Notes under the pieces: model-generated | Seen by the model: only the letters and a program-made list of their open reading frames with translations | What the model was told of the DNA's origin: nothing | Databases searched by the model: none | Assembly: GCF_021021475.1 (NCBI RefSeq) | Contig: NZ_JAINWL010000001.1 | Location: forward strand, 434,001-498,000 | Reading direction: 5' to 3' | DNA: 64,000 bases | From: Citromicrobium bathyomarinum | GTDB taxonomy: Bacteria; Pseudomonadota; Alphaproteobacteria; Sphingomonadales; Sphingomonadaceae | Shown: positions 17,016 through 54,787 of the stretch, in pieces | Numbering within the stretch: position 1 is the stretch's first letter | Layout of the letters: each line of letters begins with the position of its first letter | Made by a program: the position numbers and the translations under genes

Positions 17016-17127
17016 TCCTCCCCCCCCTTTTCAAAGGAGGGGATTGAGGGGTGGTTGCGAGCCGGCAGGCTCGATCTGTGCCAAGGCACCACCCCCAACC
17101 CCCTCCTCTGAAAAGGAGGGGGCTTTA
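17016..17127. repeat. Double-hairpin repeat, copy 1 (3' of lepA)
   Basis: Two G/C-tract hairpins flank a variable centre. The left hairpin is a C-run, TTTTCAAA, then GGAGGGG; the right is CCCCCTCCT-CTGAAA-AGGAGGGGG. Inside are GGAGGGGATTGAGGGGTGG, shared exactly with the trmD copy, and CCACCCCCAACCCCCTCC. The element ends about five bases before the lepA stop, so it may also serve as the transcript's 3' structure. Confidence 0.8.
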
Positions 17128-49055: not shown

Positions 49056-49442
49056 TTACGCGTCCTTCTTCTCGCCCTTGGCGGGGCGCACATCGCGGCG
49101 TTCGGCGATGCGCGCGCTCTTGCCGGTGCGGCCGCGCAGATAGTACAGCTTCGCACGACGCACGACGCCGCGGCGAACCACGGTGATGGAGTCGACGATC
49201 GGCGAGTAGAGCGGGAACACACGCTCCACACCTTCGCCGAAGCTCATCTTGCGAACGGTGAAGTTGGAACCCATGCCGCGGTTCGAACGCGCGATGACCA
49301 CGCCTTCGAAGTTCTGAATACGCTCACGCGTACCTTCGACGACCTTCACGCCGACGCGGACGGTATCGCCGGAGCGGAATTCCGGAATATCCTTGCCGAG
49401 ATTTTCAATCGCTTCGGCTTCGAGCTGCTGAATCAGGTTCAT
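49056..49442 (-). CDS. rplS: 50S ribosomal protein L19
   Basis: L19 sits at the subunit interface. The 128-residue product starts [20 protein letters not shown] and has [20 protein letters not shown] and [20 protein letters not shown], all family typical. The short charged tail ([12 protein letters not shown]) is unremarkable. Its start overlaps the trmD stop by four bases (ATGA). It is the final gene of a ten-gene minus-strand run that ends in a strong terminator. Confidence 0.96.
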
Positions 49443-50278
49443 TGGTCCTGGTCCTTCGTTTCTCGCTGCGCGCCAGAGGCAGACTGGACCGGAGCATCGG
49501 TGTGACGCTCCCACAAATCCGGCCTGCGTAACCGTGTCATTTCTTCGGAGCGTTGCTTTCGCCACGCCGCGATCTTCGCATGATCCCCCGATCGCAGCAC
49601 TTCGGGGATCGTGCGCCCTTCCCATTCCTGAGGTCGGGTGTAGTGCGGGTATTCCAGAAGGCCGTCCTCGAACGACTCCTCCGTCCCGCTTGAAGCCGCG
49701 CCCATTACTCCCGGCAGCAGCCGAATGCAAGCGTCGAGTATGGCGATTGCGGCAGTCTCTCCGCCCGACAGGACGATGTCGGCAAGGCTGACTTCCTCGA
49801 TAAAGGGGCGCGCCTCGAACAGCCGCTCGTCGAACCCCTCGAACCGGCCGCACAGGATGGTGACACCCGGCCCTTCCGCGATCTCGCGAATGCGCGCCTG
49901 CGTGATCGGTTTCCCGCGCGGCGTCATCGCGAGGACGGGGACTCTAGCTTCCCCTCCCTTGAGGGAGGGGATTGAGGGGTGGGTGTTCGACGCTTCGGGT
50001 GCAGCACGCCCCTCCCCAACCCCTCCCCGCACGGGGAGGGGCTTATCAGTCACACTATCCAGCGCCGCTGCCAGCACATCGCACTTGAGCACCATGCCCG
50101 CCCCGCCCCCGGCAGGCGTATCGTCCACCGTGCGATGCTTGTCGGTCGCGAAATCGCGGATCTGCACGGTGTCGAGCGACCACGCGCCCTCGCGCAACGC
50201 ACGCCCGGCGAGCGACACGCCGAGCGGGCCTGGAAACATCTCCGGGTATAGGGTCAGGACGGTGGCGGTGAAGGTCAT
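49439..50278 (-). CDS. trmD: tRNA (guanine-N1)-methyltransferase TrmD with an in-frame repeat insertion
   Basis: TrmD methylates G37 next to the anticodon using S-adenosylmethionine. The 279-residue product has [15 protein letters not shown] at the start, [18 protein letters not shown], the knot region ([25 protein letters not shown]) and [12 protein letters not shown]. Residues about 76-113 (49940-50053) do not belong to the family. They are encoded by a palindromic double hairpin like those near lepA and rimM, and read in frame. The insert falls in the loop before the strand leading into the AdoMet knot, a place that could tolerate it. The start is ATG at 50278. Enzyme activity is expected but not proven. 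Confidence 0.94.
49951..50042. repeat. Double-hairpin repeat, copy 2 (inside trmD coding sequence)
   Basis: Left hairpin CCCCTCCCTTGAGGGAGGGG (49951-49970); right hairpin CCCCTCCCCGCACGGGGAGG continues to about 50042. Between them is GGAGGGGATTGAGGGGTGG, identical to the copy after lepA, then a variable centre and CCCCTCCCCAACCCCTCC. The copy is translated on the minus strand without a stop. Confidence 0.88.
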
Positions 50279-50282
50279 GCAA

Positions 50283-50702
50283 TTACTCGAAAACATCCGG
50301 ATCGGGCACCCGGGCGCCGCCGTCTCGGGGGCGCACCAGGCGGATGGTCAGATAGGCGGCAACCAGATCGACGCCGAGGGCACTGGCGTAAAGCATCCGG
50401 CCGCGCGTGTTCATACGCAAAAAGAGATCGATCGCCTCTGCCAGGGACGGCCTGCCGAACGTCGCGATGGCGGCGATCGGCAGGGCGACCAGAAGCACAA
50501 AAGCGGGCAGCGCACCCGCGATGGTAAGGCCCAAGGTCGAACGCCGGGACATTCTGCGCCTCAGAACGAAAGCGCAGGCCGCGCTTAGCAGCGCGCCGAT
50601 CAGAAGGATCACGGCGAAGATGATAAGCAGGTGTGACGCCGGGAAAACCGAAGGCTCAGCGGTCGAAACAGTGACCGAGACAGATGCAGCGGTCGCGATC
50701 AT
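50283..50702 (-). CDS. Membrane protein of unknown function (VFE tail)
   Basis: The 139-residue protein begins with a Ser/Thr/Val-rich segment, then three to four hydrophobic helices (about 25-45, 57-78, 103-120). It ends RVPDPDVFE. The tail resembles those of two other small membrane proteins in this run (EKVFD at 53368-53700, DVSTFQ at 50699-51019). The ATG at 50702 overlaps the upstream gene's stop by four bases. The trmD start is four bases beyond its stop. The function is unknown. Confidence 0.7.
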
Positions 50703-53706: not shown

Positions 53707-54276
53707 TTAATCCGCGAATTCGGCGGCGATCACAAGGCGCTTGTCATCCCATTCGGGCACGGCGGTCGGGATCATCGGGACCATGAAGGTCTTCGGGCCC
53801 TTTTCGGGCACGGGATCCTGCGCGATCTCGACAATGTCGGTCGCGCCGTAATTGGCGACGTCGATCACGCGGCCCACTGCGGCCCCATCGGTGGTCACCA
53901 CCGGCAGGCCGATCAGGTCCGCATGATAGAACTCGCCTTCTTCGAGCGGGGGCAGCGCGTCGCGCGAGACGCTCAGCAAGGTGCCGCGCAGGGCTTCGGC
54001 GGCGGTTCGGTCGGGCACCTCGGCGAAGCGGGCGATCGCCCCGCCCTTGTTGTCGGAGCGGATCTTGGAGGCGGTCAGCTGCCCGTCGTTGAAGGTCTTG
54101 TGCGCCTTGAGCGCATCGACATCATCGCCGAACAGCTTGAGCCGGACCTCGCCCGCCACCCCGTGCGCGCCGGTGACGGCGGCGAGAACAATGTCGGGGC
54201 TGGTGACGGGTTTTGCACGCGAGTCCCCCTCCCGCTCGCGGGAGGGGTTAGGGGTGGGCCTGGCAGGGCGCGTCAT
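53707..54276 (-). CDS. rimM: Ribosome maturation factor RimM, with its start inside a repeat
   Basis: RimM assists assembly of the 30S head near S19. The 189-residue product has the RimM core (LAAVTGAHGVAGEVRLKLFG) and the PRC-barrel region (EFYHADLIGLPVVTTDGAAV). The first 30 residues (MTRPARPTPNPSREREGDSR and onward) are unlike normal RimM and are encoded by a palindromic repeat. No ATG, GTG or TTG occurs in frame between 54276 and the conserved core, so the repeat supplies the start codon. It follows rpsP by 55 bases. Confidence 0.92.
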   Translation of the reverse strand: MTRPARPTPNPSREREGDSRAKPVTSPDIVLAAVTGAHGVAGEVRLKLFGDDVDALKAHKTFNDGQLTASKIRSDNKGGAIARFAEVPDRTAAEALRGTLLSVSRDALPPLEEGEFYHADLIGLPVVTTDGAAVGRVIDVANYGATDIVEIAQDPVPEKGPKTFMVPMIPTAVPEWDDKRLVIAAEFAD

Positions 54277-54320
54277 CGCGTGACGCGCCCACCCCCGGCC
54301 CCTCCCGCTAGCGGGAGGGG
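54226..54320. repeat. Double-hairpin repeat, copy 3 (rpsP-rimM junction, overlapping rimM 5' end)
   Basis: Left hairpin CCCCTCCCGCTCGCGGGAGG begins at 54227; right hairpin CCCCTCCCGCTAGCGGGAGG ends near 54320. A third palindrome, GGCGCGTCA-TCGCG-TGACGCGCC, lies in the middle and holds the rimM start codon. The segment GGAGGGGTTAGGGGTGGG is a diverged form of the core shared by copies 1 and 2. Confidence 0.85.
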
Positions 54321-54331
54321 AGCGAAGGTCA

Positions 54332-54787
54332 TCAGCCTTCGGCCTTTTCTTCGCCGGCGTCTTCAGCAGGAGCTTCGGCGGCGGTTTCTTCAGCCTTGGC
54401 TTCTTCTTCAGCCGGAGCTTCCTGGGCGGCCTTCAGCGCTTCGGCGGCTTCGGCTTCCTTGGCGGCCTTTTCCTCGGCGCGTTCCTTGGCCTTTTCGCCC
54501 GGCTCGGCCTTGTTGGGGTTGTTGCGCGCAGCACGCTCACGAATGCCGGCGGCATCGAGGAAGCGGGCGACACGGTCGCTCGGCTGCGCGCCGACGCCGA
54601 GCCAGTACTTGGCGCGGTCTTCGTTCAGCTGCACGCGCTTCTCGTCGTCCTTGGCGAGCAGCGGGTTGTAGGTGCCGATCTGCTCGAGATAGCGGCCGTC
54701 ACGCGGATAGCGCGAGTCCGCCGCCACGATGCGGTAATAGGGGCGCTTCTTGGCGCCGCCACGGGAAAGTCGGAGTGCAATAGCCAT
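54332..54787 (-). CDS. rpsP: 30S ribosomal protein S16 with Ala/Glu-rich extension
   Basis: S16 is an assembly protein of the small subunit. The first 80 residues match the family ([20 protein letters not shown], then [20 protein letters not shown]). The 151-residue product has about 70 extra residues made of Ala, Glu and Lys repeats ([20 protein letters not shown]). S16 tails of this kind are known in Alphaproteobacteria. The gene follows ffh by 38 bases and precedes rimM. Confidence 0.95.

What the first reader, a model, noticed from the sequence alone, without database searches (positions are those of the whole stretch)
54226..54320. rimM translation appears to start inside a repeat element
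The third copy of the element covers the rimM 5' end. No ATG, GTG or TTG lies in frame between 54276 and the conserved RimM core, so the ATG in the central palindrome is the only standard start. The repeat would thus have replaced the native start and added about 20-30 residues. Hairpins at the initiation site could also dampen translation.
Basis: partly seen in the sequence, partly recalled or inferred. Interest (0 to 1): 0.56.

Follow-up and report, generated by a model that had tools for sequence, protein, structure and literature searches.

The report
rimM start codon inside a hairpin repeat
In this marine bacterium a hairpin-forming repeat sits where the start of the ribosome-maturation gene rimM should be and supplies its only normal start codon, and comparison with relatives suggests that ribosomes reach it from the upstream ribosomal-protein gene through a tiny bridging reading frame.

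Summary
A 95-base, REPIN-like inverted pair of hairpins fills the gap between rpsP and rimM, and the ATG in its centre (54276, minus strand) is the only standard in-frame start before the RimM core. Relatives make the reading stronger and broader. Eleven genomes of several genera carry the same element at the same place, single-copy by its centre wherever that was searched. Ten keep the central ATG invariant although the six bases before it all vary. The element is 88% identical between genomes, against 51% for rimM third codon positions. In all 11 an ATG overlaps the rpsP stop and opens a small frame: in seven it ends ATGA on the rimM ATG, in three 4 nt before it, in one overlapping a retained native ATG. 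Closest relatives carry a different repeat there (read through in frame), a third family, or nothing, so the junction is a repeatedly exchanged repeat site. Best explanation: the repeat replaced the native start, and rimM is translated by termination-reinitiation relayed across the hairpin. Start use is well supported. Relay and regulation are inferred: GC-rich sequence keeps the frame open anyway, and the phylogenetic test is underpowered. New variant of a known kind.

The parts
54332..54787 (-). rpsP (ribosomal protein bS16), upstream gene; stop codon TGA at 54334-54332
   Evidence: PF00886 E 9.7e-30; ORF
54273..54332 (-). bridging small [22 protein letters not shown], 19 codons: its ATG overlaps the rpsP stop by 1 nt (TGATG) and its TGA overlaps the rimM ATG by 4 nt (ATGA)
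   Evidence: role inferred
54226..54320 (.). REPIN-like element (type 1): two 22-nt hairpins in inverted arrangement around a single-copy centre
54299..54320 (.). hairpin H1 (5' in the mRNA), stem pairs invariant in 11 of 11 genomes
54266..54290 (-). central hairpin H2; the rimM ATG lies at the 3' side of its loop; two compensatory pair changes among 11 sequences
54274..54276 (-). rimM start codon ATG
   Evidence: only standard in-frame start; invariant in 10 of 10 genomes compared, E. oryzae left out
54226..54247 (.). hairpin H3 (3' in the mRNA), translated as part of RimM; broken in G009
53707..54276 (-). rimM, 189 residues; the first 17 or so residues (MTRPARPTPNPSREREG) are repeat-encoded

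Best explanation
A REPIN-like palindromic element has replaced the native 5' end of rimM, and its central ATG (54276, minus strand) is the working start codon, giving RimM a repeat-encoded N-terminal tail (shown by sequence and comparison, not by protein data). In the mRNA this ATG lies inside a very stable hairpin system. A ribosome finishing rpsP at TGATG reinitiates on the overlapping ATG, reads 19 codons through the 5' hairpin, stops at the TGA of ATGA, and reinitiates on the rimM ATG. The small frame thus turns a 55-nt structured gap into two canonical overlaps (-1 and -4 nt), so that RimM synthesis depends on S16 synthesis and stays well below it (inferred).
For: Only standard start in frame; in G380 an in-frame TAA directly precedes the ATG, so no read-through is possible there. 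ATG invariant in 10 of 10 (E. oryzae left out), with 0 of 6 invariant columns just before it in the same loop and 0 of 8 in the spacer. Element 0.883 mean identity against 0.509 for rimM third positions and 0.507 for the flank behind it. Centre single-copy at rimM: 7 exact hits in 397 genomes, all at rimM, one per genome, plus 1 of 7 two-mismatch hits. ATG overlapping the rpsP stop in 19 of 19 type 1 and 2 junctions, 5 of 170 others. Small frame ends -4 nt on the rimM ATG in 7 of 11, 4 nt before it in 3 of 11, and -8 on a native ATG in E. oryzae. Coupling in nature needs just such -1/-4 overlaps and fades by about 20 nt (abstract of PMC10666635; abstract of PMC6728339). In E. coli ribosome density on rimM falls about ten-fold below rpsP with equal mRNA (passage of PMC4378010).
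Against: No protein, ribosome or RNA data. That the small frame stays open is expected from composition: 0.74-0.98 of shuffles in the ten genomes using the central ATG, 0.69 in E. oryzae. The phylogenetic pair test gives only 5 supported pairs, nearly always in the expected direction (4.9 of 5 on average), median p 0.0625. Two unrelated repeats at this junction (L236, L254) have the only start in the repeat centre with no ATG near the rpsP stop, so a bridge is not obligatory. Downstream of the ATG, variable columns are not concentrated at third codon positions (9, 4 and 6 of 17 at positions 1, 2 and 3), so selection on the tail peptide is not seen.
Confidence: 0.66

Rival explanations
1. The ATG is the start, but the repeat is merely a tolerated insertion: no relay and no regulatory role; it persists because its centre happens to carry an in-frame start.
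For: Repeats also occupy an in-frame site inside trmD of the same genus, where a role at initiation is not possible. Openness of the small frame is expected by composition. REPs inside ORFs, including sphingomonad ones, are known (section 15 of PMC3733652).
Against: Conservation of the element far above silent sites, invariant H1 stem, ATG kept inside a variable loop. Overlap ATG in 19 of 19 type 1 and 2 junctions against 5 of 170 others. Strong hairpins are confined to this junction: 36 in 7.3 kb against 5 in about 202 kb of neighbouring sequence in 97 loci.
Confidence: 0.24
2. The repeat is untranslated leader; RimM starts at a non-standard codon (such as ATT) in the conserved core.
For: AUU starts exist (infC of E. 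coli, recalled). REPs annotated at ORF 5' ends can be non-coding (PMC3733652 section 15).
Against: No conserved alternative codon: the ATT of G000 is shared only with G006 and reads ATC or GTC in the other type 1 genomes. All ATG-to-core distances stay multiples of three (75, 78, 90). The ATG is invariant in a variable loop.
Confidence: 0.06
3. RimM starts at the ATG overlapping the rpsP stop and reaches the rimM frame by frameshifting inside the repeat.
For: Type 2 relatives do start at that ATG and read through their repeat in frame.
Against: Needs a frameshift in two different phases in different genomes (distance 56 or 53 nt against 55 nt); no slippery site was sought; a legal ATG lies on the stop.
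Confidence: 0.04

Closest known systems
REP / REPIN elements (REP doublets of Proteobacteria)
   Same: Two GC-rich palindromes in inverted arrangement about a short centre, between co-directed genes, close behind a stop codon
   Different: Not high-copy by its centre; no Y1 transposase in 14 of 15 genomes searched; conserved at one locus across genera; supplies a start codon
Intragenic REPs and Rickettsia palindromic elements (RPE)
   Same: Repeat DNA translated as part of housekeeping proteins, some in RNA-modification genes (passages of PMC10969869; PMC3733652 section 15)
   Different: RPEs are in-frame inserts; here the repeat replaces the initiation site and the reading frame changes inside it
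Translational coupling by termination-reinitiation (TGATG / ATGA overlaps)
   Same: Exactly the -1 and -4 nt overlaps
   Different: A 16-19 codon frame made largely of repeat sequence bridges two genes about 55 nt apart
trmD operon of E. coli (rpsP-rimM-trmD-rplS)
   Same: rimM directly follows rpsP and is translated about ten-fold less (passage of PMC4378010)
   Different: E. coli has no such repeat there (recalled); the role of mRNA folding at its rimM start is recalled, not read here

Membership tests
REPIN | two palindromic REPs in inverted orientation | tested here: met
REPIN | many similar copies in the genome | tested here: not met
   centre unique in each of 9 type 1 genomes whose rimM copy matched the pattern; 9 matches to the element in G000, several being the two strands of one palindrome, only one non-self match over most of its length, 72%
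REPIN | RAYT (Y1 transposase) in the genome | tested here: not met
   PF01797 in 0 of 1 and 1 of 15 genomes (only G303)
REPIN | GTAG or CGTC terminal tag | not tested
   the consensus figures of PMC3733652 were not available as text
Translational coupling by termination-reinitiation | stop and start overlap or lie within a few nt | tested here: met
   -1 at rpsP and -4 at rimM in 7 of 11; -1 and +4 in 3 of 11; -1 and -8 in 1 of 11
Translational coupling by termination-reinitiation | downstream expression depends on upstream translation | not testable with these tools
   needs a reporter assay
Rickettsia palindromic element-like intragenic insert | repeat read in frame inside a host protein | tested here: met
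   about 17 residues of RimM here; whole repeat in type 2 relatives and in TrmD

The most novel reading that the evidence does not exclude
The rpsP-rimM junction of Erythrobacteraceae is a modular translation relay. Unrelated repeat families are repeatedly swapped into one site and domesticated so that ribosomes are passed from rpsP to rimM through a strong hairpin, either by a small bridging frame made of the repeat (type 1, some type 3 and others) or by in-frame read-through (type 2), setting the S16:RimM ratio.
Probability: 0.27. Interest if true: 0.76.

Novelty: new variant of a known kind. Interest (0 to 1): 0.55.

Why it matters
It would show selfish palindromic DNA supplying the initiation site of a conserved ribosome-assembly gene, kept for long enough to be found across genera while its start codon and stems stayed fixed. 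It gives a natural set of sister strains with swapped junctions in which the effect of repeats on operon stoichiometry can be measured. It also warns that start-site annotation in sphingomonads cannot treat repeat-encoded N-termini as spurious by default.

Tried and rejected
Fresh mobile insertion: rejected as the whole story, because the exact centre was found only at rimM and no Y1 transposase was found in G000. A chance frame was examined for the bridge: openness alone proves nothing, so the weight rests on the stop-overlapping ATG. A single long hairpin (1 compensatory pair, 82 of 500 shuffles as good) is less supported by covariation than three local hairpins (3 compensatory pairs, 1 of 500; slid versions reach 2). 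Terminator or promoter in the repeat: no promoter-like site; the one terminator-like site is on the other strand and at chance level. Vertical descent: parsimony needs 11 changes for 11 type 1 rows, so simple inheritance is unlikely; whether gain, loss or exchange cannot be told. Paper searches for repeat-supplied starts, REPIN with Sphingomonas, and rimM with Erythrobacter repeats gave nothing on this junction in their listings (open-licence library only).

Full report
What is there. On the minus strand rpsP (54787-54332) is followed by rimM (ORF 54276-53707). Between them lies a 95-base palindromic element, 54226-54320: two 22-nt GC-rich hairpins in inverted arrangement around a centre that holds the rimM ATG. 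NCBIfam and Pfam identify RimM with alignment beginning only at residues 29-31, beyond the repeat-encoded part. No other ATG, GTG or TTG lies in frame between the rpsP stop and the core.

The same junction in relatives. The window's genome (G000) belongs to a genus whose named records in the collection include Alteriqipengyuania abyssalis and several Citromicrobium. In the ten genomes of the genus searched, all ten junctions carry a repeat, but not the same one: type 1 (as here) in G000, G005, G006, G009; a different GC-rich hairpin pair (type 2) in G001, G002, G004, G007, G008; a third family in G003. Type 2 is read in frame from an ATG overlapping the rpsP stop (TGATG). G002 is labelled same species as G000 and yet differs; its flanks are 92-99% identical per 100-base block over the kilobase before the rpsP stop and the first 800 bases from the RimM core.

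Census. I tried 219 loci: 14 could not be resolved, 16 were identical to others, 189 distinct junctions remain. The sample leans to near relatives of the query. Of the 189, 143 are short and repeat-free by my length rule (at least two of these, L227 and L265, hold a short hairpin all the same), 11 are type 1 (10 by the rule plus L029), 8 are type 2 (L024 a variant), and 27 are other long junctions, including nine with CTTCGACAGGCTCAG-like repeats and seven with other GC-rich repeats. Empty relatives commonly have about 33-42 nt between the rpsP stop and the RimM core, often with an ATG just before the KPVTLAA stretch (83 of 143 have an in-frame ATG). In type 1 genomes the native ATG is gone, except in Erythrobacter oryzae, where a native-like ATG survives behind the repeat.

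Single locus, conserved. In 12 genomes a loose pattern for such elements found many with other centres, but the rimM centre occurred once per type 1 genome, at rimM; it matched in nine, while G009's altered right arm escaped the pattern. Across 397 family genomes the tighter pattern gave 7 exact hits, all at rimM, and 7 hits with 2 mismatches, of which one (G380) is at rimM and six are not. Among 11 type 1 sequences the element averages 0.883 identity, against 0.696 for the rimM core, 0.509 for its third codon positions, 0.507 for the stretch behind the element and 0.818 for rpsP. Without E. oryzae, invariant columns are 0 of 8 in the spacer before the element, 21 of 23 in the H1 region, 0 of 6 in the loop before the ATG, and 3 of 3 in the ATG. 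H1 pairs never vary (10 of 10); H2, whose loop carries the ATG, has two compensatory changes and H3 one; 97.7% of cells pair. This points to selection on the start codon and on the stems, though H3 is broken in G009.

How ribosomes may get there. In 11 of 11 type 1 junctions an ATG overlaps the rpsP stop by one base (TGATG or TAATG). In seven the frame it opens is 18-19 codons and ends with TGA overlapping the rimM ATG (ATGA). In G380, one of the seven, the spacer is three bases shorter and the frame is kept. In three the frame is 16 codons and ends 4 nt before the rimM ATG. In E. oryzae it runs 38 codons through the whole element and ends overlapping the surviving native ATG. Overlap ATGs occur in 19 of 19 type 1 and 2 junctions and in 5 of the other 170. 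Some unrelated repeats show a similar layout: ATG-started frames ending ATGA on rimM in L030, L093, L097, L112 and L250. Against this: shuffles show that such frames stay open anyway (0.69-0.98 for type 1); the tree-based pair test has only five supported pairs, nearly always in the expected direction, median p 0.0625; and 17 of the 46 long junctions have no ATG near the stop, among them L236 and L254, whose only in-frame start is still in the repeat centre. The abstract of PMC10666635 reports that reinitiation needs short overlaps and is almost abolished at about 20 nt; the abstract of PMC6728339 reports strict coupling in 13 of 14 tested pairs. A relay by the small frame would meet that need. 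The element folds at -81.5 kcal/mol as one long hairpin with the ATG near its tip, so unaided initiation should be poor.

Possible use. In E. coli ribosome density drops about ten-fold from rpsP to rimM on the same mRNA (passage of PMC4378010). REPs within 15 nt of a stop codon are reported to stall ribosomes and lower translation, and REP structures can protect mRNA from exoribonucleases (passages of PMC12306157). Here 11 nt separate the rpsP stop from the first hairpin. A role in holding RimM low, or in protecting rpsP mRNA, is therefore plausible but untested.

A hot site. Strong hairpins (stem 9 or more) in 97 loci: 36 in 7.3 kb of junction, in 20 loci, against 5 in about 202 kb of ffh-side, rpsP, rimM and downstream sequence. 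Nearest relatives often differ: G005 type 1 against G004 type 2; G106 type 1 against G215 and L111 type 2; G380 type 1 against a third family in L100. On a tree of 189 rows type 1 needs 11 changes for 11 rows and types 1 and 2 together 11 for 19 (short alignment, quick tree). Exchange of junction segments, repeated insertion and many losses all remain open.

Membership. The layout is that of a REPIN, but the high copy number and the Y1 transposase were tested and not met, so I call it REPIN-like. Repeats read as protein are known in Rickettsia and, for REPs, in genes that PMC3733652 lists for E. lithoralis and S. alaskensis (PMC10969869 passages; PMC3733652 section 15); that paper also warns that many N-terminal cases may be non-coding. 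What I did not find described in the listings of the searches made is a repeat that supplies the start of rimM with a bridging frame.

Noticed in passing
49951-50041 in trmD (49439-50296, minus strand): A second, different hairpin pair lies in frame inside trmD and encodes about 30 extra residues. In the genus the same spot holds four states: this element in G000, G005, G008 (and by alignment length G006), another in G001 and G007, a CTTCGACAGGCTCAG-type repeat in G003, and no insert in G002; G009 matched in two pieces with only a few bases between them, as G002 did.
   Followed up: partly
17017-17122: A third, degenerate hairpin pair of the same general kind.
   Followed up: no
L236 (G245) and L254 (G175): Two other unrelated GC-rich repeats at the rpsP-rimM junction whose centre holds the only in-frame start (GTG at +54, ATG at +53), with no ATG near the rpsP stop.
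   Followed up: partly
L001 against L002 downstream of rimM: G000 and G008 are 89-97% identical through the first 500 bases from the RimM core but then fall to 33-71%, suggesting recombination or gene replacement next to rimM.
   Followed up: no
L030, L088, L093, L097, L112: ATG-started small frames also run through other long junctions (a CTTCGACAGGCTCAG-like repeat family in four of the five) and end -4 to +2 nt from the rimM start.
   Followed up: partly
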